Below are positions 775-63,767 of a DNA stretch of 64,000 bases, piece after piece. Position 1 is the stretch's first letter. Each line of letters begins with the position of its first letter. The DNA comes from Astropecten irregularis. Lineage: Eukaryota > Echinodermata > Asteroidea > Paxillosida > Astropectinidae. The notes under the pieces are model-generated. The model saw nothing but the letters and a program-made list of their open reading frames with translations, had not been told where the DNA came from and did no database searches. The stretch is taken from contig OZ020257.1 of the NCBI GenBank assembly GCA_963971285.1, positions 15,886,602 to 15,950,601 on the forward strand, written 5' to 3'. The translations under genes were made by a program, and so were the position numbers.

Positions 775-3700
775 TTAGATGCTACAGACTGTGCATGTTA
801 TCTCGCGACCATTGACGTATGGGGGACACAGAAGTGCACCACACTGCCCTTCAACGATGAAGAGAAGAGCTTGATTCACGCTGGTCTGACTGCCGGGGAT
901 CGCCTCTGGGGCCTCATCCACGCAGATGGCCGCAGATCGCTGCTCGGTGTTGTATTTACCGGACATGAGGAAGCCCCGGTACTCCTCCGTCCAGTTGCTG
1001 CTCGGGCAGCCGAGCGTTGCCGGCAGCAGTAGCTTGGTGCTGCGGTTAACCAGGCGGCACACCGCGCACGGCACGTCGCGGTCTTGGATGACCTCGGTAT
1101 TGTCGTGGGAGAAGGGATCGTAGGGGACCTCGTACTCCACCCCGTACAGATAGGACTGGGAGTTGGCGGTATCGCTGTAAGACGCTGCCCAGTCAGGCTC
1201 GGTCGGTAGGCACCAGAAGTCGGTAGAGCCACCTTTGTGGCCGGAATGCGACCCAGCTGCGATACCTGCACAGGAGAATGACTACCTATTAATCGGAGCA
1301 TGTATCTGTACTAGTATTTGAGTGAGTAAAGTTTCATTACTTGAGACTAGTATTCCTTGATAGTGTATCTCATAGTAGAGTTTCTTTCAACGCATGAGTT
1401 TCATCTTCAGAAAAAAATTGTAGCTCACGCACAGAATGTGTTATACAAGATGTTCTTCGCTACTTCTCTACGACCCATTCTTAAAACCAGGCCTCGGAAT
1501 AGGTTTTCATCGGACTTATAAGGCGGACAGAGCCCTCCTCAGAGCCCACCTCAGTAATTTGACCCTTGTTTAAAGCGAATAGTCACCTGCATACACGAGC
1601 TCTGTGTCTGGACTGTTTGGACAAGAAGTGCGCCCCCATCGGACATAGGTGTCTCCTCCTGATGATGTGGTGAAGTCGGGGTAGATATCTTGTGCACGAT
1701 GTAGCATCTTATCTGGAGAGGTATAGGAATGAATGATCGAATGAACAGCTAAGTCAAGCATCAAGGAAATAACACATGGGGCTCATGACAATACAGGCAC
1801 CACTCAATTGTGAGTTTGTGATTATTTCTCTTGATATTATGACAATAAGGGCGATCCCAAATAGTGCGCCCTCAAGAGTTTGCAACGCGTTGGCCAATCA
1901 CAATGCACGGAATCTATCCGCATTGGGTCGACAAATTCCGGGCATTGTGAATTGCCAACGCGTTGCAAACTCTTGAGGGCGCAATTTGTGGAATAGGTCT
2001 TATTGAATTGAAGAGTTCATTGTTATCTTTGGACTTTATTATTGAACATTGAATCAGTTTTATGTGAAGTCTCGGCTCTCTAAATAATACTGAGGTGAGC
2101 TCAGTGAAACTTTTCCAATGACTGCCAATGAATATTATGGTCGCACAGGGCTATCGTACGTCTTATCATAATTAAAACGGTTTATTTGACATTTTGTTTC
2201 CTTGCATGGTCTTAAGCAAAGGCCGATGTAAAGGTTCTGTCCCCCCATGTAAACTTCATCCGCCCGGACACATTTACACGGTTGTAGCCATGTACGAGGG
2301 GACATTATTACACGGCTCTGGTCATGGTTGTTCTGGGGACACTTACCTGGGTAATTCTGTTTCCCGGACACATTTAGAGGGGGGGGGGGGGCAAATTTGA
2401 CCTTTACACCGTACCATAAACTTGGATTCAAGTTATACAATGGCAATTCGTTGACGGGCCAAATAAAGTCAATTTTTGTTAAGAATCCTTTTCTTCAAAA
2501 GTCTATAAAAGTACTTAATTGGTACTCACCATTGGCTTCCTCGTCATCCGCGTCTCTCTTATGCCGTCGATGAGCGACCATTCCCGGTAGCCCTGACTCC
2601 TCATCGATGCCCATGTCTCCCTGCGAGGCATGAGACAAAAAACCGGCCGCATCAGAAATAGTGCATCATGTGGATTATTCTACAAAGCTGTTACCCACCT
2701 TGACTGGGTTTATAGACTTGACTGGCGACGTTCGTTTTGGTGATACTGGAAACGAATATAAAGTAGGGACCGCCGGGAACCAATTCTACTACGCCTGGTT
2801 CAAAACGAACCATTCGTTTTGAGCAGTGGTGTCTCCCGCCCTCTGTTGGCAATTCGGTGATTTTTACTCGGCATTAACGAAACGAACGACGCCATTGTAG
2901 TCAAGACTAACTCATACATGAAAATGTTCACTACCTTTTCACCCTTTAATCCTTGTAGGCCGGCCGGTCCAGGCGCTCCCTCTCGTCCGTCTTTACCGTC
3001 CCGCCCATCTCTCCCGTCTCGGCAGGAACAACTACCAGAATTCCCTGAAAAACGCCCAAAATAATACACGTTTTGTGTTGATTTTGTCATACATTCTTAA
3101 TGTCTCAAGCAAAATCAGTTTTTTCCTTTTAGCATTATTCTTACAACCAACAATTTGACTTACCAGGTTCCAAAATATTGGACAGGAATGTACCATTGGG
3201 CTTGCCGGCGCGGCCGGGAGACTCAGGGGCGTCTTGGTGCCGTCGGTTTCGTCGACCGGCGGAGTTCCAAGCTGGAGCAATCTTCACCGATCCGGATTCG
3301 GATAAGATGTCCTCCAACCACGACAGACGATCGTCGTAGATTTCCATCTTGTCCTGTGCCAAACATATCAGAATTAAACATTGCTTCATGACGAAAAACT
3401 ATAGTCCCATAATAGTGAGCTACAAATATGTAGAGCACTGAATCTACTGTACTCTTAGTGCTATAATTAAAGGGTTTCTGCAATAGGAATATTATGGCTG
3501 GCATATGTGTCAAAAAGCAACTGTTTTATGGGGCCTGTGATTTTACCCACTTCCTCGCACTGTTTCAGGGTTAACAACAGGTTGTTTTTTATGCTAATTA
3601 GAATGTCTATATTCATAAGCAAAACTGTGACGTCATCTGGGTATCTGAGAGCCAATTTGTGCACGAAAAGTTAGGGTTGTTTGACCTTTTCCTCCTCAAT

Positions 3701-4221
3701 GGATTTTATTGTGCCGAATAATTATGTTCCTTTCACTCAACTGGTGGTGTAAATTTTTTGCCAAACCATTTCTGTGGAGCGATTTTGCCTCTTAATTCTT
3801 TTTTTTTTTTCCATTACACTTTTGCTGTTGGTTCCCCACATGAGCGTGCATGAAAATTACCCATTTTGCAAAGCCATTCAAAAGAAAACGACTGCCAGCT
3901 TGAAACCAAAATAAGACTTGCCATTCATTATCTGTCAGTATATTCTCTGTATGAAGACAATGAAATAACCTGACTGAAAAAAGCACTGCGGGAACCCTTA
4001 AAGGCTACCCCAACACTCACCCTGACTGACTGCAACTCCTTGTTGACGTAGAAAACTGCCGCACCGATCACGAACAAGGTGAGGCAGAGGTTTGCCAGGC
4101 TTCCCAAGAAGAACCAACGCCACAGCTTTCTGCTCTTGGCGGACTGGCCATTCTCGTAAAGCACGGGCCCACCATCCTTACCAATTGATAACTCTGGAAG
4201 CTTGGGCAAAGGAGCCATCAT
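775..4221 (-). CDS. Type II transmembrane collagen-like protein, short-chain collagen C4-like (paralog A)
   Basis: Six coding exons, read right to left: 4021-4221, 3164-3353, 2935-3044, 2530-2620, 1587-1688 and 775-1265. They splice in phase to 394 aa; a start at the second Met (4218) is equally possible. Order of parts: short basic cytosolic N-terminus beginning MAPLPKL; one membrane segment at about residues 36-58; a linker with RRNRR (about 101-105); a short collagen rod (Gly-X-Y from about 139 to 173); a second basic site RRHKR (185-189); then a Cys-rich C-terminal domain of about 195 residues with YVRWGRTSCP, HKGGSTDFWCLP and a terminal CTVC. That C-terminal domain is the one annotated 'short-chain collagen C4-like' in cnidarians, echinoderms and amphioxus. 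I infer an extracellular or cell-surface matrix role. Its tandem neighbour B has the same exon structure. The first codon of exon 1 and the 5' edge of the 102-bp exon are the least certain points. Confidence 0.85.
1858..1995. mobile_element. Palindromic MITE-like element, family 1 copy 1
   Basis: The left arm reads gcgccctcaagagtttgcaa and continues acgcgttggc. The same arm returns inverted at about 1953-1985. Arms are roughly 45 bases around a short loop, so the single strand would fold into a long hairpin. A second, diverged copy lies at 13851-14018. It sits in the intron between the 102-bp exon and the 91-bp exon of collagen-like gene A. Confidence 0.75.
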
Positions 4222-5055
4222 CAAGGGACTTGTATAGAAACGCAGCCTTCTTAGTATAATGTCAGAGACCGAAATGACGGGTTTTCAGTCCTACCACCGT
4301 CGTCACTAGCCTTATTCGCGTATGAGGGATTTTCCCTTCTGGTTCCCTTCGTGTCTGAACCAGATGTTTTATTCAAACTTGAGGAAGTGCATGAACTTTA
4401 TGAGGAGAGTAACAGCCCTTGAAAAGGAAATGTACCAAGGTCCATGTTGATATGATCTCGAAATGTGGCTGACGTTTACAGATAACTTCTTAGCATTTAA
4501 GCTTAAACGTGCAGCGCGCACTGAGGCACAACATGAACATTGTATGTCCGATGTCGAACTTGATGCGTGCTGCAGATACAATTTTGAAAGATCTTCCAAG
4601 TGTAACGCGTTCCCAGTGCGTTCGGCGATTGCAAAAGTGTTGTAAAACGAAACTAATCTTTCTGTGAGAGACAAATTGAGGCAGAAAGGTTTATCAACTG
4701 GATTGAAATCAATGCCACCTCTTGCCGTGATGCTGTGCCTTTAAAACGTGAGACAAGGATGACAGGAAGGTGGATGTCACCAAGTTTAAATAACTGCAGG
4801 AAACGGGCACTAATAAACAAGGAAGTATAAACTCAATTAAGAGCAGGAAAAACCCAGGGAGATTGTGGAAAGGACTTGTTTTCTAGAATCATATTAAATA
4901 ATACAATGCTACATATGCACCAGTACATTTATAACTATAGTATATTGTGGAATCTTTATTGAAATATGTAGGTTTAACATACATTATTGTCATTATCGAA
5001 TAAATACAAGCTTCATTAATTGTAAGTCATTGAAACAAAAGACATTTCGTGGGAT

Positions 5056-5095
5056 GACTTGAGCGGGATTTGAACCAGCGACCTCCGAAACCTTT
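5056..5095. repeat. Half copy of the tRNA-like foldback repeat
   Basis: The segment gcgggatttgaaccagcgac, followed by ctccgaaacc, matches one arm of the fuller copies at 19.9 and 42.7 kb. Only one arm is present. Confidence 0.55.
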
Positions 5096-6103
5096 TGTTA
5101 GACTTTTTGTTTAAACAAATTTTAATATAGGATCATAATTCGTTCTCGACAAAATACAACACTATCTTGTACTAAAAAAAAATGTAATAATGTGTTAAGA
5201 AATTTCTGATTATCTGCTTTCGTCTGCTTGGCATTGCACTGATGGCTCTCCGTAATCTCTCCATTTTTGGTTGCCCATCAAACACGGAATGTCACATTGG
5301 AAAAGAAACAAAAGGCTTTTAAAAGCTTTACATTATAATAGTGGTTGCAAATATTAAAGATTACCATTCATAAAACTGCTTTTGCCGCATTGCAAGTGAG
5401 GCCTGATATTATAAAGTGTAAACATTTTGAACCTTTTAATCTTGTTTCCAAAAGCATTTGCGAATCCTTCCCTGATTTCTACCCGTACCACCCATGCCGA
5501 ACACTACAAGTGCATGTTGGAGCTTGCAAACAATTAATACATTTCAAGACAATAGAGTGGACGGTGCAGTCATTGTTTTTCATATTTGTTCTTATCGCCT
5601 TTTCAATAAACTGTAAAATAGGCCACTGTAATAACCCTCTGATATTTTCCGTAGTATTTGAATGAGAAAACAAGGCGAAAACACTGAATTTCACCACATC
5701 AATGGCCGTGATCATAGTTAAGTGATTGCTTGCTCCATCTGATAATAGGTGGGCGTGTTAATCAATGAGGTTTGGAACTATATGTTTATATTCATGCATT
5801 CTGATTACTATTAGCCTACAAGTTCAAATTCACATTTTTAATACTCGTTACAGAACTGCTGAGTTACGGATATCAAACTTAAGAAAACTACATTCTAAGA
5901 CAATATTATTTACAAAACTGCTTTTAAGAAATTCACCGCCCCATGTCTGATCTCGTTTCAAATTAACAATGTTAGACTAATGTCACACGAGTTCGAGGCA
6001 ATCATCAAGAGGAAATAATATACGTTTGAATTCTAAATTGCTTTCTCAAGAACATTATAGTGATCTACAGGAAATTGTTCCCAACTCACTGAAGCTTGAC
6101 TTT

Positions 6104-6275
6104 TTAAAGGTAACTTCATACTTTGTTTTATTTTTCGGTTTTTTGAACTTCGGTTCTAAAGAAATACAGCATTTCCCGCAGAACAATTTTCACGGTACGT
6201 TTCTAACATCACCATCTTTTATACCATGTAAGTTATTGTAATGCTGTGAAGATTTCTGTTTGGTATATACAAAAT
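6104..6275 (+). mobile_element. Truncated TTAA-flanked MITE, family 2
   Basis: It begins ttaaaggtaacttcatactt, the family-2 left end. It then shows the family interior: 'aaagaaatacag', 'acggtacgtttctaacatcacc' and 'gtaagtta'. The right terminus is not preserved, so this is a decayed copy. Confidence 0.6.
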
Positions 6276-6355
6276 AGGTAGTTCAAGTAGTTTATAGTAC
6301 AGTTTATGGGTGTTAAGTACTTCAAGATGCCATTCTAGTGAACGATTGTGAACTG

Positions 6356-9300
6356 TTAGATACTACACACGGTGCATGTTATTTCGCGGCCTGTGACATA
6401 CGGGGGACACAGAAGTGCACCGCACTGCCCTTCAACGATGTAGAGCAAAGCGCCATCCGCATTAGCCTGACTGCCGGGGATCGCTTCTGGGGCCTCGTCC
6501 ACGCAGATGGCCGCTGATCGCTGCTCGTGGCCGTGGTGCCCGGACATTAGGAAGCCCCTGTACTCCTCCGTCCAGTTGCTGCTCGGGCAGCCGAGTGTTG
6601 CCGGCAGCAGCAGCTTGGTGCTACGGTGCACCAGGCGGCACACCGCGCACGGCACGTCGCGCTGGTTGATGATGTCCACATTAGAGTGGATGAATGGATC
6701 AAAGGAGACCTCGTACTCCACCCCGTATAGATAGGACCCGGAGTTGGCGCCATCATTGTAAGATGCTGCCCAGTCAGGCACAGACGGAAGGCAGAAGAAG
6801 TCAGTAGAGCCACCTTTGTGGGTGTAATGCGAGCCAGCTGCAATACCTATGAAACACACAATAAATACATCACTTTTAAGATCCAAACTTGTTTACATCA
6901 ATTTAAAATGCTCGTTTCTTCCTCCAATTGCATGCGGACACAATTTACATTAATTGGAACATTTGGGGTTTTTGTCTCGTTGCCATGGGGCAACCGGGAT
7001 CATGGATTTTTTTATTTAAGTTCCCTTGATCGTTCGGGTTATGGTTTAGCACAATATCACACCTGCATACACCAGCTCCGCATCATTTGGACAAGAAGTG
7101 CGCCCCCATCGGACGTACGTGTCTCCTCCCGAAGGCCTGTTGCCGTCCTGTGTAGGCGAGTCTACAGTAGGTGCAAAAACGAAATCAAAGTAATCGAATA
7201 AGACGGTATCGACATCATGGTATCGAAATGTACATGTTCACACTGGAAAATGCGAGGATCGTGTCATGATGTTATTGGAAGCAGAACCTACCTATAGGGA
7301 GGTCGTCGTCCACGTCTCTTCTTTGTCGTCTGGGTCCAACGATTCCTGGTAAACCAGACTCTTCGATGATGCCAGTGTCCCCCTGCAGGCGGGGAAGCCA
7401 AACAAAAAACAATCAACTGAGCTCCCGCCTGAACATTTTCTTTCACCCATTTTGTAAGTAACTGGCGCCGAAATATACGCCTTCGGCTGAGGGATTCAAA
7501 GCCTTGTCATTCTCTCTATATCATTAAGGCAAACATGCTTCAAGAAAAGCCACTGAGCCTGTGTTTTCAGCTTTTGGACGATGGAGACGAAGCCAGTGTC
7601 AAAGCCAGCTCCTGTATCAAAGCCTTAGCCATGCAGAGTCTAAACCGAATGTTCCATGAAGGGTCAGAATTGATGTAATTCAAACTTGTGAGCGTCACAA
7701 TCGTATTAAACCAATCAAAATTTAGGGAATGGTCACTGGCAGGCTGTGCGTGGATATTGAACTGAGAGCCGCAGACTAACATATTGCTGTCACGCTACCC
7801 GATATTTATATAAACAAAATTTCGGGATGATACATGTACGTACCTTTACACCCTTTTCTCCTTGTGGGCCGGCCGGTCCCCGAGGTCCAGCTCGTCCGTC
7901 ATTACCATCTCGCCCGTCTCGACAGGAACAACTCGACTTCCCTGCAATTATCGGGCGAGTTTGAGAAGAGAATAGTACGTAGTGATGGAAATTGTATCAC
8001 TGTGTATAAAAGGCCAACGTACTTTTGAAGGAAACAATCGTCTTTCAAACCGTCTTAATTTGTGCGTTGATTTCTTTCTTTTCTTCAGACGTTTCATTTT
8101 ATATCTGCCCCTAAATTTACAATATTGGAAAAAAAATTATAATCCATACCATGTTCGAAAATACCGGACAAGAATGGTGTGGCTCGGCCGGGTGTCTCAG
8201 GGACGTCTTGGTGCCGTCGGTGTCGCCGACCGGTGATCTTCCAAGCTGGAACATCAATCTTCACCGATCCGGATTTGGAGGACATGTCCTCCAACCGCGC
8301 CAGACGATCGTCAAAGATTTTTACCTTGTCCTGAAAATCCCCCCAAAGATGAGAAGTTTTCATATCAGAATTACTCGAGACGAATCAGAGTTCGCCGGGT
8401 ACGAACCGTCAACTTGAATCCCGGTGTCACGATCTGAACTGTCTGGCATGCCGAGCTGACCGCATGACGAAACCGGCCAGCTAGGCATGCAACGAACACG
8501 AGCTCAACTGTCTGGCATGCTGAGCTGACCACATGACGAAACTGGTCAGCTAGGCACGCAACGAACACAAGCTCAACTGTCTGGCATGCCGAGCTGACCG
8601 CATGACGAAACCGGCCAGCTAGGCACGCAACGAACACAAGCTCAACTGTCTGGCATGCCGAGCTGACCGCATGACGAAACCGGCCAGCTAGGCACGCAAC
8701 GAACACAAGCTCAACTGTCTGGCATGCCGAGCTGACCGCATGACGAAACCGGCCAGCTAGGCACGCAACGAACACAAGCTCAACTGTCTGGCATGCCGAG
8801 CCGACCGGATGACGAAACCGGCCAACTAGGCATGCAACGAACATGGGCTCATCTGTTTAGCGTGCCGAGCTGACCGGATGACGAAACCAGTCAGCTAGGC
8901 ACGCAACTCACCGTAACCGTTACTATCGCTCGTATGATTTAAGACGCATAAGAGCCCCTGATAGCCTTCGTAATTCTAGTTACGATCGATCTATAGGGCA
9001 GTCGTGTAACAAAATAAGATCTGTCATACACTGTCAAAGAAATCTTGTAATTTTTACAGCCAGACTGGCAGCGGATCTGCCAACAAACCCCTTTAAAAAG
9101 TACAGTCTGCATTTCAAATATTGCAAAATCGTTCACAGTATTATTATTGTAAAATTTACATTTCACTGCGCTGGTGTCGATTTCTGTTCATGATTGGGTG
9201 GGGATGATTGGTGATTTGGTGTCCTATGTGAGGGAGCGAAACGACCGAGCGGGTGGAGGCTGTGGGAGGTGGGATACCCCCTCCCAAACCAAGGACTTTT

Positions 9301-10530
9301 TAATGAAAACAGAGTCGAAAAGTCGCATTTTAGAGCATTTAAAAACAATATTCAGAAGAATTAAACGGTATAAATTCATTGCGAAGACTAACAAAACAAC
9401 AAGGATCATGTAATATTTCTATACAATAAAATTAAATGACATTCAACCTCAAAATAATTTGGGGGGGGGGGGGGGGGGGTGATAATACACGCCACACCAC
9501 CCCCCCCCCTCCTCAAATATTGGGGATGTATCCCCCCCCCCCCATCCCCCGGGATCGACACCCATGGTTCACTGTAAATATCGTTACAATTTCCTGTAAA
9601 ATAAAAACATCAAATTACTGTATTTTTTTTTTACAGTGGACTGTTCAGCATTGCAGTTAGCTGTAATGTGTTTTTAAAGCGGGTAAAATAGCAAATTACA
9701 AGGGTTTGTTGGCAGATCAGCTGCCAGTCTTTTTACTGTAAAATTTACAAACATTTTGTGGTTTTACAGTATATTGTAAAAAACAAATTACAATTTTCCT
9801 GCAAAATAACACATTTTTCGTCATTTTATAACCTAAAATAGTTAAAAAGACATATTAAAAATGAACGTTTTGTCATTAACTCGTCCATCACAGACATATA
9901 AAGAAGATGCACTTAAAATCTTGATTTTAAATTGCCAATTTTATTTGGCAATGATGCATGGGGAATGCTATGGAAATCAAAATATACAACGTTTGTGCAA
10001 AATAAAAGGCTTTTAAATATTGACAATTGAGATGTACACAAATTCATGCAACCTCCTTCCCTTCTTACAATTCAAATTATAAAGAGTAAGACATGAAAGA
10101 TGCCAAAAGGAGACTTTGCAGTTCTGTGTGGGGAGAAAAGGTCACATAACAGCTGACATAAATTTCTAAAATTCCGAGCAAATAATTATGCATTCCGTAC
10201 TTATATCCTACAAAAGATGTCTAAATTATGTACCGCCACTACCCACTAGTCAAGATAATATGGGGAGGCGCATACAGAAAACTAGTGAGATCTAAGAGGA
10301 ATTAAAACAGAGACCCACAATATACTCACCCTGACCGACTGTAACTCCTTGTTGACGTAAACTATCCCCGCACCAACCACTAACAAGGTGAGGCACAGGT
10401 TGGCCAGGATTCCCAACAAGAACCAGCGCCTGGAGTGAATCTTGACCGATCGCTCATGTCCGTGAAGCACTACCAGCCCACCATCCTTACCCGCTGCTGG
10501 TAACTCGTGAAGCTTGGGCAACGGAGCCAT
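6356..10530 (-). CDS. Type II transmembrane collagen-like protein, short-chain collagen C4-like (paralog B)
   Basis: Six coding exons, read right to left: 10330-10530, 8150-8330, 7844-7941, 7292-7382, 7063-7161 and 6356-6846. They splice in phase to 386 aa with a single clear start (MAPLPKLHEL). The layout matches paralog A: cytosolic tail; membrane segment about 36-58; linker with RRHRR (102-106); collagen rod of Gly-X-Y triplets (about 136-163); second basic site RRQRR (178-182); and a C4-like domain with YVRWGRTSCP, HKGGSTDFFCLP and a terminal CTVCSI. Exons 1, 4 and 6 have exactly the same length in A (longer start) and B (201, 91 and 491 bases), and all intron phases agree, so the pair arose by tandem duplication. 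Intron 1 has grown to about 2.0 kb and hosts a 69-bp minisatellite and long G and C runs. Extracellular function is inferred; no partner can be read from sequence. Confidence 0.87.
8434..8910. repeat. 69-bp minisatellite, about seven units
   Basis: Units start with ctcaactgtctggcatgc at 8503, 8572, 8641, 8710 and 8779, exactly 69 bases apart, with more diverged units on both sides. Middle units are nearly identical, which suggests recent homogenisation. Because 69 is 23 codons, the minus strand stays open over about 157 codons with a 23-residue repeat. It lies in intron 1 of collagen-like gene B, and no splice site supports including it as an exon. Confidence 0.9.
9458..9552. repeat. Poly-G tract followed by poly-C tracts
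   Basis: A run of about 19 G is followed within 90 bases by several C runs of 8 to 13. The two could pair as a hairpin or form a G-quadruplex. It lies in intron 1 of collagen-like gene B. Exact run lengths may be affected by sequencing. Confidence 0.7.
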
Positions 10531-10902
10531 TATCAGGAGACTTACTTGTTCAGAGAAGCGCTGCTCGGTGATATACGAACTAACTGACGCTGCCAAAACA
10601 AGCCTTCCAAACAAGCTCGGAGACACGAACTGACTGTTTATCTGTTCGGCCTCGGAGTATTATGGTAATCGGCTTCGTGTTTTCACAAATTTTGTTTTGC
10701 AGTACGAGTATTTTCTTTTTTTACAGTGAACTGTAAAGGATTATGGAACCAAACGCCGAGGTTGACACTGAGCTCCATCACCTGATGATACCAAGCTTTG
10801 CGAGGGAAAGTCCCGCGCGTGATAAATAAACAGGATTGTCCTCATTTTCTGAAACTCAAAAGTTTGACACCATAAAGTGTCTCTGATCTGGTTACTCTTC
10901 TC

Positions 10903-12277
10903 CTTCATGTGAAGGTGCTGTTTTGATAAAACTTCGGGAAGTAAACAGAGAAAACTGTAAGAAAATACTGTACATAACAAGAAATAATATACGGCGGTTA
11001 TGGTGTTATCTTCAGTAAACCGAAGCTTGAAGCAAGAGTTCTTTCACTCACAAACAACTCAATTTACAACTGGCATCCGCTCTCGCCTCTTGTGTAAAAA
11101 CAAATAAATAAGCAAACACCCCAAAAGACCAAATAACAAAATCGATCACCGATTTCCAAAATACACTGCAATGTTTTTACTAGTATAGGCTTATTGCCGT
11201 GATGAATAATTAACTGACGTTTGACGATTAAAAAAATCATTACATTGGTCCGTAGCCCAAGAAGGATATGTTTTTTAATGCATGATTCACTCATTTATTA
11301 AATGGCTTCGGTTGATGATAGGAACTCAGTAAAACTGAGTTGTAACCAGGAGCGGATCCAGATTTGTTCAAAAAGGGTGGTGGCGTGGGCGAACAAAGCT
11401 AGCAGGTTACGGTGGGCGGTGAGCCTGAGGTAGTGAACCAGCCAATTAACTTTGTCCCTAATTCTTGTTCTTCTCCTTTTGAGATACTCCCTCTCTATAT
11501 GCTGGTTTTTCTGTCTTTTTATTCTTTGCTGAAAGGAAAGGGGGCGTACGTGTGCCCCCACTGGATCCTCCGAGACCTTCTCCTTCTCCTTCCTGTGAAG
11601 GTGCTGTTTTGATGAAACTTCGGGAAGTAAACAGAGAAAACTGTAAGAAAATATTGTACATAACAAGAAATAATATACGGCGGTTATGGTGTTATCTTCA
11701 GTAAACCGAAGCTTGAAGCAAGAGTTCTTTCACTCACAAACAACTCAATTTACAACTGGCATCCGCTCTCGGCTCTCGTGTAAAAACAAACAAGCAGACA
11801 CCCCAAAAGACCAAATAACAAAATCGATCACCGATTTCCAAAATACACTGTAATGTTTTTACTAGTATAGGCTTATTGCCGTGATGAATAATTAACTGAC
11901 GTTTGACGATTAAAAAACAAATCATTACATTGGTCCGTAGCCCAAGAAGGATATGTTTTTTAATGCATGATTCACTCATTTATTAAATGGCTTCGGTTGA
12001 TGATAGGAACTCAGTAAAACTGAGTTGTAACCAGGAGCGCCGCTCCAGATCCAGATTTGTTCAAAAAGGGTGGTGGCGTGGGCGAACAAAGCTAGCAGGT
12101 TACGGTGGGCGGCGAGCCTGAGGTAGTGAACCAGCCAATTAACTTTGTCCCTAATTCTTGTTCTTCTCCTTTTGAGATACTCCCTCTCTATATGCTGTTT
12201 TTTCTGTCTTTTTATTCTTTGCTGAAAGGAAAGGGGGCGTACGTGTGCCCCCACTGGATCCTCCGAGACCTTCTCCA
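10903..12277. repeat. 685-bp tandem duplication, two copies
   Basis: The block beginning gtgaaggtgctgttttgat at about 10908 recurs at about 11593. The copies run to about 11587 and 12277. They match over nearly their whole length, including 'atacggcggttatggtg' and 'cactggatcctccgag', with small indels such as an insert near 12040. The right copy abuts a GC-rich foldback element. Confidence 0.85.
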
Positions 12278-28409: not shown

Positions 28410-31400
28410 TTATGCCATGCTGTCGTACATGTCCTCAACCCTTTTGAGTAGCCTCAGCAGTGGCGTGACTGGGTATGGGAACAGATCGCTGTCGCTGATC
28501 CTCTCAATCAGGAAGCGAAGTCGGATCAATGTGGTCATCGCTTCTTCCAGGGACCGAGACATAAATGTGTGGCTCGTCAACTCCTGGATGTCCCCGGCCG
28601 TCGAGGAATGAGATGATTCTGTACTGGCAGCTGTGTCTCCCCGTGAAAGAGTGGCATCAGGATTGTCTGATGGAGGAACAGTTCTTGATGTGCTGAAGAC
28701 GCCGCCTCTCACTTCAGTCGTCTTCCCTGTCATAGTTTGGTTGGTTCCACCTGTACTTATTAAACTAGTGGATGCGTGCGTTTCTACTGATAAGTCATCT
28801 TCTGATTCATCACCTTGTGATGGCATGTTGGACTGCGACGGAGGACTGTTCCATCCAGCCTCCTGCAAGTCAGAGGTTTGTAAGTCTGAACTTCCCTCTA
28901 TTTTCCTCCTTTTTGATGTTGGGGAATTCTCTCCTAGAGTCTCCTTGTGCTGATCACGATTCTGGCCGATATCGACACCAGCAAGAGTTGGGCTGTCCAC
29001 GACCGAAACGTCATCCGAAGAGGCATTTTCATCGTCTTCACTACTTTCCTCATCGAGCACATCATCAGGAGATTCGTTGGAACGTGCCTTTGCACCCATT
29101 GAGCTCATGCTCAGGTGAGAATGGCAAAACCACTTCCAGTCGCCGATGACAGCGTGCAGGTACTGCACGAAGTACTCCAGGTACGGAGTCTCGGTCGATA
29201 TCAGCAAGTCGAGGAGCACACTCGGATCGTGGACGACGGTGTCCAGGAATGTAGCGAATATTCTGTGGGGATTGAGATGGATCTCAAGCAGTTGACTGGG
29301 AGGTAGTGACCGGACGGCTTTCTGGAGGTCTAAACAGCAGTGCATAGCCCACACGAGGCTGTCGTCCTGGTCGGCAAACACCTTGAAAAGCCACAGGGGA
29401 AGGTCGGACGACACATCCAGGCCAACCTTTGAGCCGACGTAACTGGACAGGACATGCAGACATTTCTCAACACCTGTTTATTGTGAAAAACAGCAAAAGT
29501 TTTAGTACCAAATGAAAATTTGTAAATTCTACACTTACTATATTGTGAGTTCACCAAATTATCACGACTGAATTGAAAAAGAGATAAGAGCATGAGCAAC
29601 AAGGAAATGGGTAGTGATATCGAACACAGCATATTCCCGTGCCTTACCTTCTTCTGTGAGGCTGCTCTTGCAGTTACCATCGCAGAGGAGTATCCTCATT
29701 GCGGAAAACGTTACCCGGCAAAGTTTCCGTAGTAACGTCCGATCCCCCAATTCAACATCATCATCTCCTGCATCTGGAGTCCCACAGTTGAGAAAATGTC
29801 CTCCCCCAAACCCAAGAGGACCATTCTCATATGGGATGCCGTCAAAAAGGTTTCCATTGACAACCAAGTCAAGAAAACTATTTGCCACGTTGACTGAATG
29901 AAGATGATGGGTAGGGCTGGAGTGTGTTTCAGTTCCAGTTGTTTGGTTTGTGAGTAAAAGGAAGATATCAAGGGTTCTCTTTAGAATAATGACATCATGG
30001 CAATATTCCTGGAAGAGTCTCATGAGAGGAGTGGTCAGGTTTGCCGTGAAGGTTGTCCAGTTTTGGTCTCTGGTACCGTCCTGTTTCAGCAAAGCGAATG
30101 CAAGATCCAGGAGTGATCCCAGGAGAAGGGTGATGTGGGGGATGTTATCCACTCTCCATCTCGGTGGTCGTTGGGCAGATGCTGGTTGAGCAAAGACATG
30201 AAGCATTTCGGGGAGGTTGATGTACAGGAGATGCGTCAACTCTGACTGCTGACCTGGAAGAATTAAATAAACAACTTTGGAAACAAATTGTTCTAAATAC
30301 TTGTACAGTATACACTACGGCAGTTTATGATCCTGTTCTTATCAGGTGAGGTGTAATTCTTACTGATGAAACAGCTGACTTAATGCATTTCCTAGATTGA
30401 TACCCATCATTTACCAGGGTGTTTACCTTGGAGTTTTTCACAGCCTTCTTCATCAGTCAGCATGCTAGCTATCCTTGTGCATATTTCCCTTCCTTTCGTC
30501 CTTTCGCATCGCCCCTTTAGCTCTCTGCTTGTCTTCTTGTCACTGAGCTTCCTCAGAAGATGCCGGCAAAGGTCAAAGGTGAAGATCACGTGGTTGATCT
30601 GACCCGTGCTGACGCTGCTGGGACTCGGGTCATCCGATGGTGGCTGGATTGTCCTGGCATGGCTCTCATCGTCCTGGCTACCATTTACTCCGCTTCGACT
30701 CGTCCGACCTCGGTTCAACTGACCCATGCTGTCCCAATCCCGACAGACCCGTCTCGAATTGCCGCGATCAGTCTGACCTTGAACTGCCTCCCCGTGATCA
30801 GGATGACCCTTCTGTGATTGATTGATCTGACATGGGTCAGTCCTAGACTTGATGATCTCCCCTGAATAAGCGGTACTATCCACATCGACCTGGTTAGGGT
30901 CAGTGCTTGGCAGATGACTTGCTGTCACTAACTGTTGACATGTAACAGACATAAATGCCTTGATAGTCGCCAAACTTCTACGAAGGTGATGTTGGAGGAA
31001 TGATGCAGACTTCACCTGTATAAAGTGCAGTAATCACAAAAAAATACACATTACTTTAATGATAAGGAGAATAATTTAGATTTAAAACAGTGCAAGCATG
31101 GTTCAGTAATCAGGAAAGCTCGGCTTCTAAATAATGTGTGTGCATTATGAAACCTATTCCACTGGGTTCTTAAGTCACAGTCGGCACTCTGATACTAGAA
31201 ATTCATCTCTTTAGATCAATAGCCATCAATTTCAATGAATGATTCTGACTGGACTATCCAGACCGTAAACACTGATAAATTTTATGAAAACAGGACGAGT
31301 GGCAGCTCATTAGGCACTACCTATTTAAAATGATCAACACAAGTAATAAACTGCTACAAACTGTTCATCAGCCAAAATTACCTGAAATATATCAAATGCT

Positions 31401-42100: not shown

Positions 42101-45100
42101 CAGCAGGATCCGTGATCTTTGGCTCGAAACAGACAGGCCCTATGTTTGTGTCTAGCCATTGCTCTTTAGATTCTTTATTGGTTATTGAAGAAGTTTGAAA
42201 CGATTCACACATGAATGACTAAGAACGGCAAGGTCCGTGTTACATGTACGGGTACATGAGCATTGTGTGGCCAGGGTCACCAAGGCAGTGACAAGATGCA
42301 TGGAGATAGATGCCTCTGTGAAGTCCATACCACCCTGATTGGATCTAACCGATTTCCTCATCGACAGGTCGTCTGAACTGGTGGGCAGCGAATAAAGTAT
42401 GCAGTCGCCTCTGGCCGATGGCAACGTCTGGGGATGGTAACTGCCTTCTTCATGCTGCTTCCCTTGGTAGGTTTAAGTAGATTTCAGATGAACAATTCAT
42501 TTTAATTATCATCAAATAACCACAAAAGGACCTGAGGTTGATCTCACGAAGCCCTACGATCGATCGTAACTCGAGTTACAAAGGATAACTCATTGTATCC
42601 TACGTAGGGTTGCAATGCATCATAAGTCCTACGATTTATAGTAAGTTACGATGAGTTTGGTGAAATCGAACCCTGGCTGGATAAATTTTTATATTAATGA
42701 ACAAAGAAAACATGAGCGGGATTCGAACCAGCGACCTCTGATACGGTGTTCCGAAGGTCGCTGGTTCAAATCCCACTCCAGTCAATTTGTCTTTGTTCAC
42801 TTTTCAATGACTATTAATTTTAATTTGGATTATAAATGTAATATTAACAAATCTTTTTTGAACAGGTTCTTGCCTACATCTCAAATTTTGTAGTTGTGAT
42901 GAAGATTTAAACCACTTACTCAAATGCCTATAAATCCTAGAGCTTTGATTTGATGCAAATTTATACAGGTATGTGGGGCTTCCACGATCGACAGTTAACA
43001 CTACGCAAGGCCCTGTACCATGCGCTGACAGAAAACCCACGCTCACAGCGCATGCAGAAATTGAAAAGACGATGGCGTTGGCAACAAACTGAAATCAATC
43101 AAAAGGTTTGTATATTGATAAATTTCAGGATGGCTGATACAATATGTCTTTTTTCTAGCAAAGTTGTGCCAAATACCTAGTAGTGGATTAAAGGTAGTAT
43201 CATACTTTGGTAGCACACTGAAATAGAAATCTTCACAGATTTAACTATAACTTACAGGGTATAAAAATGGTGATGGTAGAAACATACCGTTAAAATGTTT
43301 CTGCCTGAAATGCTGTAATAATCCACCAAAAATATGTTTGATCTTTTAACAGTGTTTAAAGATCAAAAATTGAAGAGAAAAGGCTTAAGAAATATTGTAG
43401 ACGTTTTTCACTATTTCTCAAAAAGTGGGCACCGTATGGGACAGATGACTGTTACTGTATCTTCCTTGATATTTTTGCCCATGAATCTGTATTTCTTTGA
43501 CAAAAACCAAAGTATGGTATTACCTTTAAATATTGAATTTGTTTGTAAGCCTCAAAGTTTCTTGGACATTAGGGTATGAATAAATCCTTTTAATCAGCCT
43601 TTGCCATTTTGCACACTCCCTTTTTCCTGTGCCTCATCTTGTTAAGGTGAAATGGTACAAACTTATTATGATTTTTGATCTTGGTCTGCAGTCTGGCCTG
43701 ATGTACTCTGAAAAGGAATGGGAGGAGGAATGGAGAGGTTCACTACGTCTTGCTTCAGCCGAACCGAGAACGCCCATTTCAGCAGGTTCAAAGTAATAAT
43801 TTTACAAAATCTGTGTTGTTACGCAATTGCCTGAAGATACAGTGTACGCTCTTTTGGCAAGTTTCACGGTGAAACAAATGTAATTTATGGGAGTTAGAAG
43901 GGCCTGACATGTTTTGATCCTACATGTCCTAGCAGAATCTTTATCGAAGATGTAAATTTTGATAAATTGATGAAGGTTGCATATTTGCATAATTGGAAGA
44001 CCATTATGTGTTGATTTTGAACTTTTTTTTCACAAAGTTAAGATGATAATGTCTAGTTCCAGATGAGATGGAACTCTTGTCTTTTACACTGTATTGAAAT
44101 TGGAGTAATTGACATTCCTTCATTTATTACAGGGGTTCCCTTCCAACGTTATCTGAGGAGAAGTCCCCTACACTCACTGACAGTAGAGAAGAGCTGACCT
44201 ACCAAAGCCTCGAGGAGTTCCATGTCTTTGTTCTGGCTCACATCCTCCGCCGTCCCATCATTGTGGTCTCCGACACCATGCTGAGGGATGCAGAGGGGGA
44301 AGCCTTCGCGCCCATCTTCTTCGGGGGGATCTACCTCCCTCTAGAGGTGCCCTACAGACATTGCGAGGCCGCCCCGTTGGTCCTGACCTATGACACGGCC
44401 CATTTCTCGGCCCTGGTACCCATGGAGCAGGATATGGTCGATTACAACCACGATGGAAGCACGGTTTTACCAGGTAAGTGAGATTTGTCCGTTGTCATCT
44501 CATTGTTAATAGAGTATGGCCAACAATATTTTTAATTTTCTATAAAAAATATCTGGAAATTTGATCCATCCAGGCTACCTGTAAGTCCATCTGGCCTCCC
44601 ATCTCGTTGTGAATAATAACAGAATCGATATTGTGTTTTTCGTCTTCTAGTTGTCATTCCTGTTACGGATTGCGACCACAGACTTCTCCCCGTGCACTTC
44701 GCTGTTGACCCTGGCCCATCTTTCCAATGGAGCATCAATGGCAAACCCAATTCACAAGATAAGAGTCTAAGTACCACGGACAAGGTCAAACTTCTACACC
44801 AGTATATGAATCTGGTGAAGATACCGAGCAGTTCCGGAGCGAAGAGAGACAATTCATCGCAGCCTCCGGCAAGGACCTCAAATGGAGACTCAAACGGGTC
44901 TGGATCTCCGACTGATCAACTATCGTTCAGCAAGAAACTGAAATACTTTGCCAAGCTTGAGAAGAATAAAAACGGGGGCTCTTCCTCGGGCAATAAGAAT
45001 TTACCTCTATCGGAGAGGAAGATCGGACCAATAACTGTGGCTGATTTGGATGATCCTACCATCATCGTTGGGTCGAGGATGAGTGAGAAACGCCACCAGC

Positions 45101-46077
45101 TCCAAGAGGAGATGATCAAGAATTACATCGATAAGGCGAAGGAGAGATTCGAAGAGGAACGTCAACTGAAAAGGCTTCTGAAAGAGGAGAACCGTCAGCG
45201 TCAACAGCAAGTGACAAACTCCCGCTTGTCACCCAGAAACTATGATGATTCTCATGACAGGGGGAGTGAGGTTTACCACGAGGAGCCCAGAGCCCATGCC
45301 TACAACCGGCAAGAACCAACGCACCCCAACAGACGGCCTAGTCCTGAAGTCCAGCAGCACGGACCCAGCCCGAAGCTGATGACACCCTCAAGTGTCTACC
45401 AAGCTCCTCTGACCCAAACAAAGAGCAATCCGATGCCGCAGTCTGCCGTGGTTCAGTCTCGGTACCACACCCCGGTAGTCAGTTCTTATACCGGTCCAAG
45501 ACCTACCAGTTATCAGCACGGTTACCAGCTTGATGCCCCGGCTGAGGTGACGGTGTTAGTCAATCAAACCAATGTCAAGCCTCATCAGCATCAAGCCACC
45601 AGACAGCAGCCGCGCTTGGACCAGTCCGGGGCAATCGGTCAGCTAGTTCAGGGAGTACATCAATTACAGCCAATGAGTGTGTACCAGCAGACACCGTCTT
45701 CACATCCAGTACAGCAGCCTCCTAGATCTCCACAGTTAGCAAGGTCTGCTAAGGTGTTGTCGCAGACACCACAGCAACCGGCATTAGGAGCCCCCTCATC
45801 CAAGGCACCGTCCCAGGCACCTGGATCCAGATCACCTCAGATGCCTCGGCCCTCCCAAGTACCTCCCTCTCCTCAGCCTTCAAAGGCATCGTCACTAGCT
45901 GCCAAACTCACCAAGTCCAAGGATTCAAAGGGCGCCAAGAATAAATATGGCGACATGGGCAGCAGGCCATGCATGTCAAGAGACTGCGACTTCTACGGCA
46001 CGGAAAACACTGACTTTCTTTGCTCTCGATGTTACGAGGCAAAGATTATCAAGAATCCCAAATTTGGTCGGAAGTAG
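36190..46077 (+). CDS. OTUD7: Cezanne-type OTU deubiquitinase
   Basis: Eight coding exons: 36190-36268, 39883-40374, 41595-41819, 42368-42466, 42969-43105, 43692-43792, 44133-44473 and 44651-46077. They splice in phase to 966 aa. The N-terminus ([19 protein letters not shown]) is the UBA-like helix bundle of Cezanne, followed by [18 protein letters not shown]. The OTU domain spans about 215-520. Its catalytic Cys291 is in [14 protein letters not shown] and its His468 in [10 protein letters not shown], both intact. A proline/glutamine-rich tail leads to a C-terminal A20-type zinc finger (C-x4-C-x11-C-x2-C, in CMSRDC...CSRC). Vertebrates have two co-orthologs, OTUD7A and OTUD7B; one gene here fits a pre-duplication animal. 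The family cleaves mainly Lys11-linked ubiquitin chains; that specificity is inferred from family. Intron 1 (3.6 kb) holds the right arm of the inverted duplication. Confidence 0.95.
36787..37245 (+). repeat. Block B of the permuted inverted duplication
   Basis: Runs from ctaaacttaagtgtataaat to ggcaaaaactacaa and matches the inverse of 34202-34662 with few substitutions (roughly 97% by eye). It lies in OTUD7 intron 1. Confidence 0.88.
37246..37693. other. Unique 448-bp segment between blocks B and A
   Basis: This segment has no counterpart next to the left arm, where A' and B' are joined directly. It contains no exon. Confidence 0.7.
37694..37945 (+). repeat. Block A of the permuted inverted duplication
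   Basis: Runs from tgtattcttactcataaatt to gattcaattttgta and matches the inverse of 34662-34913, the same 252-base length in both places. Confidence 0.88.
38012..38050. repeat. TACATG microsatellite
   Basis: About five perfect units of the self-complementary hexamer tacatg, the longest pure run of this motif in the window. Interrupted units are frequent through 36.5-41.2 kb. Confidence 0.8.
38061..38405. mobile_element. MITE with 27-bp perfect terminal inverted repeats, hAT-like duplication
   Basis: The left end, catagagttaaataaaaaac then tagagtg (38061-38087), is the exact inverse of 38379-38405. The flanking 8-mers tgctacat (38053-38060) and tgctacct (38406-38413) agree at 7 of 8 positions, consistent with an 8-bp target-site duplication as made by hAT transposases. 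The 345-bp element is CG-rich inside (repeated gcgcgc) and sits in AT-rich OTUD7 intron 1. Confidence 0.8.
41267..41437. mobile_element. Foldback element upstream of OTUD7 exon 3
   Basis: Outer ends aataggtctctgcgct and agcgcagagccttatt are inverted. An inner stem pairs atgttcggacaaac with gtttgtccgaacat. It contains gacgtcac. Single copy in this window. Confidence 0.65.
42031..42143. mobile_element. Short inverted-repeat element, family 3 copy 2
   Basis: Termini gggcctgtttgttttg and cgaaacagacaggccct are inverted. The interior is again GGATCC-rich. It lies in an OTUD7 intron. Confidence 0.7.
42655..42815. repeat. tRNA-like foldback repeat in an OTUD7 intron
   Basis: The arm gagcgggattcgaaccagcg, followed by acct, mirrors aggtcgctggttcaaatccc and then act. 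It ends 'gtcaatttgtctttgttcac', like the CACTIN-intron copy. B-box-like motifs lie on both strands. Confidence 0.7.
43188..43529 (-). mobile_element. Complete TTAA-flanked MITE, family 2, inverted
   Basis: TTAA then aggtagtatcatactttgg at the left, and accaaagtatggtattacct then TTAA at the right. The interior is in the opposite orientation to the 14.25 and 20.53 kb copies. It lies in an OTUD7 intron. Confidence 0.8.
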
Positions 46078-62400: not shown

Positions 62401-63767
62401 AGCCAGTCACCTGGAGGTCCGGCCGGTAACCTGCAAGTGTGGCCACATATGCTGGTAGGTGGACGTAGACGTTGGACAACTGCTTAAAAAGTGGGGTGCA
62501 GCGTGATCTCACAAACTTTTGGCTGCCTCCAGACTCCTGACATTAAAACCCAGGAGATGCTAAGGCACTTCCTACTCATTGGTGAATATCCAACATGTTC
62601 ACAGATTCTCTGATGCCTGTTTTTTGTTGTTTTCTTTTCTTTTCCCCTCTTTGGTTGTCCTATCCTGCAGCTTTTTGTGTGGAGAAAATTGGCACGACCC
62701 GGTCAAATGCAAGGTGAGTGTTGAATGATCGGCCAACCTGCGTGGGCTTGTTGGCTCATTGTGGACCCCATGCCTGTCCAATTGGTCATGATTAGAGACC
62801 ATCTGTCCTGTTCCATTGTGAGGGACTGGCTTTCCCACGCTAAAAGGGCGGAAGCATTAATCGGTGCCTTGCTGTGGACTAGGACTAGGTACCCTGTCCA
62901 GCTCTGTCTCTCTGAAGACACCATCAGTCTTGTTTCAGTTCTTAAGGACTGGTTCCCCTATAGTGTGGAAGTATTAATTACTGCCTTGCTGTGGACAAGC
63001 CGCCCCATCCAATCCTATTTATACTATGAAGACATTGTTTTAAGTACTGATGTCTCCATACTGCATATATTCTGCGTTTTTCCTTATTTTGTTTACCCCG
63101 AATTGGAATTCATTGCAAAATGCACTTTGTTAGGCTCTGTTTTTTTAAATAATTCCCGACAACTTCCATTCCAGTGGCTGAGGAAATGGATAAAAAAATG
63201 CGACGATGACAGCGAGACGTCCAATTGGATCTCAGCAAACACCAAAGAGTGTCCGAAGTGTCATGTGACCATCGAGAAGGACGGGGGATGCAACCACATG
63301 GTCTGCCGCAACCAAAACTGCAAGGTGAGGTTTCAAATCAGTCTCCATTGTCCAAATTTTCCTCAAAAGTCACGCGGTGTAGCAACAGTGTCTTTTAGTC
63401 TGGGGAATTCATATCTTGACTATACATGTAACATTGGTTGAAGTCGGTGGTATCAGACCATTGGTTAATTTGGCTAAATTGGTTAAACAGTCTGTTGTTA
63501 ATTTTCCATATTAAGTTTGTAAACTGCAGCTTTTTATCATTGTTGCAATCTCGGTTGCCTTTTTTTTTTGTTCTTTGCAAACAGTTAAAACAAAAAAAAT
63601 ATCTTGTAATTTTAATGAAATAATTTTAAAAAAAGATAATTGATCATCAAATTCACAATCTAGTTGTTTCTGTTGACTTCTTGATGCTAGTGTCTACAAT
63701 TTTATTTCTTTCAGGCTGATTTCTGTTGGGTTTGTTTGGGACCGTGGGAGCCACACGGGTCGTCATG
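53471..63767 (+). CDS. ARIH1: Ariadne-1 RBR E3 ubiquitin ligase, 3' end outside window
   Basis: Nine exons visible: 53471-53686, 59637-59792, 60596-60664, 61379-61471, 61831-61886, 62281-62454, 62671-62713, 63175-63324 and 63715-63767, in phase for 336 codons plus two bases. The N-terminus is acidic ([16 protein letters not shown]), as in Ariadne proteins, then [14 protein letters not shown] and the UBA-like domain (about 70-124: [19 protein letters not shown]). RING1 follows (CDICCRN...[10 protein letters not shown]), then the in-between-RING with [11 protein letters not shown] and [18 protein letters not shown], then RING2 with ECPKC. The catalytic Cys308 is in [10 protein letters not shown], then [16 protein letters not shown]. 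The Ariadne domain must lie beyond the window. The enzyme takes ubiquitin from an E2 onto the RING2 cysteine and works with neddylated cullin ligases; this is family knowledge. Intron 1 is 5.95 kb. Confidence 0.97.
54700..54810. repeat. tRNA-like repeat with A-box and B-box motifs
   Basis: Contains 'ggatggctcaggaggtcgc' followed by 'aggtttgaatctcgctccag', resembling pol III A and B boxes placed almost next to each other. It ends 'attttgttcacttttcagtgac', like the other tRNA-like copies. It lies in ARIH1 intron 1. Confidence 0.55.
55118..55252. mobile_element. Foldback element with internal GACGCGTCGC repeats
   Basis: Ends ggggccgatttcataaaac and gctttgtgaaatcagcccct are inverted. The interior carries four copies of the palindrome gcgacgcgtcgc or its core. 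It lies in ARIH1 intron 1. Confidence 0.7.
56150..59480. repeat. TACATG/GTACAC-rich low-complexity stretch in ARIH1 intron 1
   Basis: Dense, interspersed tacatgta, gtacatgtac, tgtacac and taggcctac motifs across about 3.3 kb, with plainer sequence between. There is no fixed period. Many short ORFs here are low-complexity (YMYMC-type) and are not genes. Confidence 0.7.
59886..60125. mobile_element. GC-rich foldback element, family 4 copy 3
   Basis: The best-preserved ends of this family: aagctcggctccggctcagg at the left and gagccggagccgagctttga at the right. The interior reads 'aaaatagaggctttttgctgc' and 'cagagcttcagcttcaatgg'. It lies in ARIH1 intron 2. Confidence 0.8.
60115..60355 (-). pseudogene. 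Relic of a LINE reverse-transcriptase C-terminus
   Basis: The minus strand reads [20 protein letters not shown], then [21 protein letters not shown], a stop, then [16 protein letters not shown]. The C-x-C-G-x-(E/P)QT-x-EHLL-x-CP pattern is the zinc-ribbon-like tail found at the end of many non-LTR retrotransposon ORF2 proteins. The in-frame stop and lack of upstream reverse-transcriptase motifs show a dead fragment. Its left end touches the family-4 element in ARIH1 intron 2. Confidence 0.7.
61060..61285. mobile_element. GC-rich foldback element, family 4 copy 4
   Basis: Left end ctgaggatcaggcttaggct, then caggctccgg; right end cggagcctgagcttcgg. The interior matches the 59.9 kb copy closely ('gtatcaaaatagaggctttt'). 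It lies in ARIH1 intron 3. Confidence 0.75.

What the first reader, a model, noticed from the sequence alone, without database searches (positions are those of the whole stretch)
775..10530. Tandem membrane-anchored collagens with two furin-type sites bracketing the collagen rod
Both paralogs encode R-X-(K/R)-R motifs at two matching positions: before the rod (RNRR in A, RHRR in B) and after it (RHKR in A, RQRR in B). The bases in between have diverged, yet the basic sites are kept. Proprotein convertases cut this consensus in other type II collagenous proteins such as ectodysplasin and collagens XIII/XXIII/XXV. Two sites would allow alternative products: a shed rod plus head, or a free C4-like head released from its trimerising rod. 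I know of no description of such a dual-cut design in C4-like proteins; novelty is inference.
Basis: partly seen in the sequence, partly recalled or inferred. Interest (0 to 1): 0.72.

Follow-up and report, generated by a model that had tools for sequence, protein, structure and literature searches.

The report
Twin membrane-anchored collagens with paired cut-sites
A likely echinoderm carries two neighbouring genes for small collagens that appear to be anchored in the cell membrane and have a likely protease cutting site on each side of the collagen stalk; the layout is real, but cutting is unproven and similar two-site designs are already known in other membrane collagens.

Summary
Two tandem minus-strand genes, six exons each with the same intron phases, encode 401 aa (A) and 386 aa (B). 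Each reads: short cytosolic tail, membrane anchor (type II by charge), coiled-coil stretch, R-X-(K/R)-R, Cys-Ser-Cys, collagen rod of 11 (A) or 10 (B) triplets, R-X-(K/R)-R, acidic linker, and a 10-cysteine head of two internal repeats that resembles spongin-type ("short-chain collagen C4") heads. Both motifs sit in matching places. Site 2 is kept although its exon is saturated with silent changes; site 1 lies in DNA that hardly changed, so its retention says little. All eight motif positions are kept against 61 of 98 others in the stalk (p=0.028), which is modest with two sequences. The dual-cut idea is not new in kind: C. elegans COL-99 has predicted furin sites before and after its rods, and gliomedin is processed by furin and BMP-1. 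What my capped literature searches did not show is a membrane-anchored spongin-type collagen. Whether either site is cut is untested; the structure server accepted no job.

The parts
775..4218 (-). Gene A, six coding exons, 401 aa
6356..10530 (-). Gene B, six coding exons, 386 aa
4045..4110 (-). A membrane anchor, about aa 37-58 (exon 1; limits are my estimate); basic KSRKLWR on the N side, so type II
   Evidence: best 19-residue Kyte-Doolittle mean 2.08 (printed before that script failed); charges
10354..10419 (-). B membrane anchor, about aa 38-59 (exon 1; limits are my estimate); basic KIHSRR on the N side
   Evidence: best mean 2.37; charges
3303..3353 (-). A coiled-coil-like stretch outside the membrane (aa 62-83; its first residues are in exon 1)
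   Evidence: best of 7 registers over 26 residues that I chose; a/d positions LVMYLLL, 7 of 7 hydrophobic (B LVVFLLS, 6 of 7)
3240..3251 (-). A site 1, RNRR (aa 101-104) followed by HQD
2609..3021 (-). A collagen rod, aa 138-170, 11 triplets across exons 3-4, preceded by Cys-Ser-Cys (aa 135-137)
2555..2566 (-). A site 2, RHKR (aa 185-188) followed by DADDEE
775..1265 (-). A head, exon 6 (its N-terminal edge, YVRWGRTSCP, is in exon 5, 1712-1587)
8214..8225 (-). B site 1, RHRR (aa 103-106) followed by HQD
7371..7921 (-). B collagen rod, aa 135-164, 10 triplets across exons 3-4, preceded by Cys-Ser-Cys (aa 132-134)
7317..7328 (-). B site 2, RQRR (aa 179-182) followed by DVDDD
6356..6846 (-). B head, exon 6 (N-terminal edge in exon 5, 7161-7063)

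Best explanation
A and B are an old tandem pair of type II, cell-surface short-chain collagens with a spongin-type (collagen-IV-NC1-like) head. They trimerise through the juxtamembrane coil, the Cys-Ser-Cys knot, the short rod and probably the head. A furin-type convertase in the late secretory pathway cuts site 1, which sheds rod plus head into the matrix, as in collagens XIII/XXIII/XXV. Site 2 is a second convertase site that can free the head. Shown: gene structure by splice signals, motifs, order of parts, retention in both copies. Inferred: membrane insertion, trimerisation, cutting at site 1 (about 0.7), cutting at site 2 (about 0.5).
For: Same six-exon, same-phase genes with the same order of parts. 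Overall dN 0.19 against dS 0.48, head exon dN 0.13 against dS 0.37, so both look like maintained coding genes. Motif positions kept 8 of 8 against 61 of 98, and 4 of 4 against 12 of 49 among changed codons. Site 1 lies between coil and rod, like the confirmed site of collagen XIII and the N-terminal sites of COL-99 (PMC4678570 sections 6 and 10; PMC7848082 passages). The head has 10 cysteines in each protein, the number that Fidler et al. give for spongins (seven shared with collagen IV plus three), and no HSQ, as they state (PMC5395295 passages); it is built of two repeats ending CAVC and CTVC.
Against: Only two sequences, both from one genome; site 1 sits in almost unchanged DNA and site 2 alone is p=0.095 against its neighbours. 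P1' is His at site 1 and Asp at site 2, neither the best residue for furin (recalled). No predictor such as ProP or TMHMM was available. Nothing here shows expression. The head matches no Pfam model and no solved sequence at a meaningful score and does not align with the genome's own collagen IV C4 repeats by profile (probability 0.6% and 2.2%); in the shuffle test 1 of 12 pairings reached p=0.008, the other 11 had p>0.25.
Confidence: 0.55

Rival explanations
1. Only site 1 is cut (MACIT-like shedding). Site 2 is a basic patch at the end of the rod that binds glycosaminoglycans or caps the helix and is not processed.
For: In human collagen XIII there is a single furin site, before the rod, and use of COL-99's C-terminal site 'remains to be proven' (PMC4678570 section 10). 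Short basic clusters also bind heparan sulphate (recalled). An acidic run follows site 2 at once.
Against: Site 2 keeps the exact P4, P2 and P1 pattern through two silent Arg changes and a K/R swap at P2 while its neighbours vary, though only at p=0.095; a binding patch would tolerate shifts.
Confidence: 0.3
2. The motifs are incidental basic clusters kept by short divergence or gene conversion and are not processed; the proteins stay on the membrane.
For: Site 1 DNA is nearly identical in the two genes (exon 2 dS 0.21), and both motifs occur by chance in 0.25 to 0.97% of shuffles; two sequences give weak tests.
Against: The same two places in both genes, an extra Arg at P5 in all four, exon 4 saturated with silent changes yet motif kept.
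Confidence: 0.12

Closest known systems
[quoted passage not shown] Aouacheria et al. 2006, not held; seen only as a citation)
   Same: Short rod followed by a C-terminal head with 10 cysteines, no HSQ motif (criterion from PMC5395295 passages; counts)
   Different: Here a probable type II anchor, a coiled-coil stretch and two convertase motifs; the words 'furin' and 'transmembrane' occur 0 times in the main text of PMC5395295
MACITs: collagens XIII, XXIII, XXV and C. elegans COL-99
   Same: Type II anchor, juxtamembrane coil, furin site before the rod; COL-99 and other non-vertebrate members also have a predicted site after the rods
   Different: One short rod instead of three (mammals) or seven (COL-99) collagen domains, and a Cys-rich head instead of the conserved MACIT C-terminus
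Gliomedin and other colmedins
   Same: Type II membrane protein with collagen and a globular head (PMC7848082 passages); secreted form made by furin and BMP-1, release of the head favours oligomerisation (PMC3810605 passage)
   Different: Olfactomedin head; the second protease is BMP-1, not a convertase
C. elegans cuticle collagen SQT-3
   Same: N-terminal convertase site (BLI-4) and an astacin (DPY-31) implicated at the C-terminus (PMC11304992 and PMC10538796 passages)
   Different: C-terminal processing by an astacin; no globular head of this kind (recalled)

Membership tests
Spongin short-chain collagen-related | Short collagenous stretch joined to a C-terminal head | tested here: met
   11 or 10 triplets, then a head of about 185 aa
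Spongin short-chain collagen-related | Ten head cysteines (seven shared with collagen IV, three own), no HSQ | tested here: met
   10 in A and 10 in B, no HSQ in the sequences; criterion from PMC5395295 passages. Only the number was tested, not a residue-by-residue alignment to spongin.
Spongin short-chain collagen-related | Head homologous to collagen IV NC1 | tested here: inconclusive
   Two internal repeats, shuffle z 3.8 to 7.4 in four pairings, the weakest aligning only 11 residues, but no Pfam C4 hit and no profile match to the genome's own C4 repeats. Structure prediction was never accepted.
MACIT | Type II anchor with coil and furin-type site before the rod | tested here: met
   by sequence and simple scores only
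MACIT | Several interrupted collagen domains and the conserved C-terminal region | tested here: not met
   One rod; the C-terminus is the Cys-rich head ending CTVCSI (criterion)
Colmedin (gliomedin) | Olfactomedin head | tested here: not met
   Pfam finds no olfactomedin or other family above cut-off in the heads
Collagen IV | Pfam C4 repeats | tested here: not met
   The C4 model's 12 matches in the genome are on C27 and C98, none in A or B on C21
Convertase substrates | Cut at the motif | not testable with these tools
   Motif present at four places; no cleavage data

The most novel reading that the evidence does not exclude
A collagen-IV-like head is carried on a membrane tether as a proform and set free by two convertase cuts, giving echinoderms a choice between a tethered collagen, a shed rod plus head, and a free head that acts as a diffusible or network-forming ligand.
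Probability: 0.3. Interest if true: 0.5.

Novelty: new variant of a known kind. Interest (0 to 1): 0.36.

Why it matters
Spongin-type collagens are described as matrix proteins and variants of collagen IV (PMC5395295 passages). A membrane-anchored, convertase-processed form would join that family to the way MACITs and gliomedin work, and would give a testable route by which a matrix head becomes a shed signal or a timed matrix building block in echinoderms.

Tried and rejected
Looking for more copies: the head protein against the whole genome gave only A and B (3 candidates scored, so a lower bound). The full B protein gave 19 matches at E up to 10: 12 are exons of A and B, 7 are rod-only matches elsewhere with E from 4e-4 to 7. 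Of these 7 I translated L022, L023 and L025, which read as other multi-exon collagens; L024, L027, L028 and L029 were only compared by tblastn, where nearly all matches fall in and around the rod. A pattern for WGRT-x-CP gave four places: A, B and two, on C18 and C19, that showed no head-like sequence in the 19.8 kb fetched around each. A more diverged head would be missed by all of these. Looking for relatives outside: nothing in GTDB species contigs (18 pattern matches, none confirmed) or phages. These collections hold no animal genomes, so this does not count against conservation. Viral contigs, plasmids and E. coli genomes were not searched; metagenome contigs were capped at 0 scans.

Collagen IV homology of the head by sequence or profile was tried and not found (the two PDB matches, E about 1, are to an inositol phosphatase and look like chance). 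In the shuffle test 1 of 12 head-half/C4-repeat pairs had p=0.008 and the other 11 p>0.25, which I treat as nothing. Reading the anchor as a cleaved signal peptide was considered and put aside because about 37 residues precede it. Alternative splicing: exons 3 and 4 together could be skipped in frame (phase 1 to 1), which would remove the rod and site 2; no RNA data here.
Full report
What is there. On the minus strand of the first 10.5 kb lie two complete six-exon genes. All ten introns are GT-AG and both genes have intron phases 0,1,0,1,1. A runs 4218 to 775 (401 aa) and B 10530 to 6356 (386 aa); in A a second ATG lies one codon upstream of the shared start MAPLPKL. A blastn of the two gene regions at E up to 1e-3 gave six matches, one for each exon with at most a few bases of flank, so the introns are no longer alignable. 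Silent divergence is dS 0.48 overall, so the duplication is not recent.

Order of parts. Both proteins have a cytosolic tail, a hydrophobic anchor of about 20 residues with basic residues on its N side, and a heptad-like stretch (A: 7 of 7 a/d positions hydrophobic, B: 6 of 7, best of seven registers). Then come RRNRR or RRHRR, Cys-Ser-Cys, a rod of 11 (A) or 10 (B) triplets, RRHKR or RRQRR, an acidic linker and a head. Calling it type II rests on hydropathy and charge, not on a trained predictor.

Are the sites more than chance? Shuffling the segments on each side of the rod gives a motif on both sides in 0.25% (A) and 0.97% (B) of 20,000 shuffles. Between the genes 8 of 8 motif positions are kept against 61 of 98 other ungapped stalk positions outside the rod (p=0.028). 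Of codons with any DNA change 4 of 4 motif codons keep the residue class against 12 of 49 (p=0.006). K/R swaps were counted as kept. The two sites differ in weight. Site 2 is in exon 4, where silent sites are saturated, and is kept through CGA/AGA, CGG/CGA and AAG/AGA changes; against its own neighbourhood alone it is 4 of 4 versus 20 of 38, p=0.095. Site 1 is in exon 2, whose dN (0.22) about equals its dS (0.21), but the block around the motif has hardly changed in DNA, so constraint and lack of time cannot be told apart.

What the head is. It has 10 cysteines in both proteins, no HSQ, and consists of two repeats that end CAVC and CTVC (repeat against repeat, shuffle z 3.8 to 7.4 in four pairings, the weakest aligning only 11 residues). 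Fidler et al. give seven cysteines shared with collagen IV plus three spongin-only ones and no HSQ in spongins (PMC5395295, passages). The name 'short-chain collagen C4' for this type of head, and the WGRTSCP signature, I recall; no tool here returned a named relative. Pfam, the PDB sequences and profile comparison with the genome's own collagen IV repeats gave no meaningful match. 'C4-like' is therefore likely but not shown here. The structure prediction that could have tested it was never accepted (13 tries, last).

Whose genome. The COX1 on contig C168 has in-frame TGA 13 times. Its five AAA codons all align to Asn in the best-matching mitochondrial COX1 of a solved structure (8ugh_4A, residues 4-509 of the query), and its seven AGA codons align to Ser (2), Asn (1), Ala (2) and Gly (2), never to Arg (read off the alignment by eye). 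AAA as Asn with AGA as Ser is the echinoderm and flatworm mitochondrial code, table 9.

How many copies. The head protein finds only A and B, the full protein adds 7 rod matches elsewhere, and the WGRT-x-CP pattern adds two places that look like chance. So conservation could be tested on two sequences only. The collections that I could search are of bacteria, archaea, viruses, phages and plasmids.

What is known. Mammalian MACITs are cut by furin-like convertases just before the first collagen domain (PMC7848082, passages). Tu et al. predict furin sites at both ends of C. elegans COL-99, show furin-dependent N-terminal cutting, and state that use of the C-terminal site, 'present in C. [quoted passage not shown] section 6 reports extra predicted ectodomain sites in many invertebrate MACITs. 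Gliomedin's secreted form arises by furin and BMP-1, and release of its olfactomedin head favours oligomerisation (PMC3810605, one passage). For SQT-3, BLI-4 acts at the N-terminus and DPY-31 is implicated at the C-terminus (PMC11304992 and PMC10538796, passages). So a bracketed rod is a known kind of design. Spongin-type collagens are reported in Nematostella (four; PMC12549020, passages), and a short-chain C4-like collagen rises during ambulacrum regeneration in a sea cucumber (PMC9785333, passages), which is a lead for function in echinoderms.

Is it in print? Searches for spongin or short-chain collagen C4 with furin or transmembrane terms listed no paper that, by title and listed start of abstract, describes this combination. 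The lists were complete for (2 papers; 9 papers) and capped for (15 of 980; 20 of 8,298; 10 of 44, mostly 'sponging' RNA papers; 15 of 345). I opened only some of the listed papers, and most subscription papers are not held.

Verdict. Observation confirmed; interpretation partly supported; a new variant of a known kind (a spongin-type collagen on a probable membrane tether with MACIT-like processing motifs). Interest 0.36.

Noticed in passing
window 8437-8907: Minisatellite in intron 1 of gene B: 69-bp unit, 6.8 copies, 93% match.
   Followed up: no
window 10741-11043 and 11298-11729: Two minus-strand open frames share the start KNSCFKLRFTEDNTITAVYYFLLC, apart from single residues further on, so a stretch just upstream of gene B is repeated.
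   Followed up: no
window 28410-29477, 44113-46077, 62725-63441: Neighbouring genes by Pfam: a Lines homologue, an OTU exon followed by an A20-zinc-finger exon (probably one deubiquitinase gene), and an IBR-domain fragment.
   Followed up: partly
own genome G000:C131:32162-33484 (L030): A COX1 with no internal TGA, open for 552 aa and scoring above the mitochondrial copy (501 against 460 bits); may be a bacterial contig (symbiont or contaminant) in the assembly.
   Followed up: no
own genome G000:C25:9951047-9952018 (L032): A COX1 piece with 7 TGA at position 9.95 Mb of a contig, probably a nuclear copy of mitochondrial DNA.
   Followed up: no
window 3164-3353 and 8150-8330: Exon 2 has low silent divergence (dS 0.21) against 0.37 to saturation in the other five exons; chance or partial gene conversion.
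   Followed up: partly
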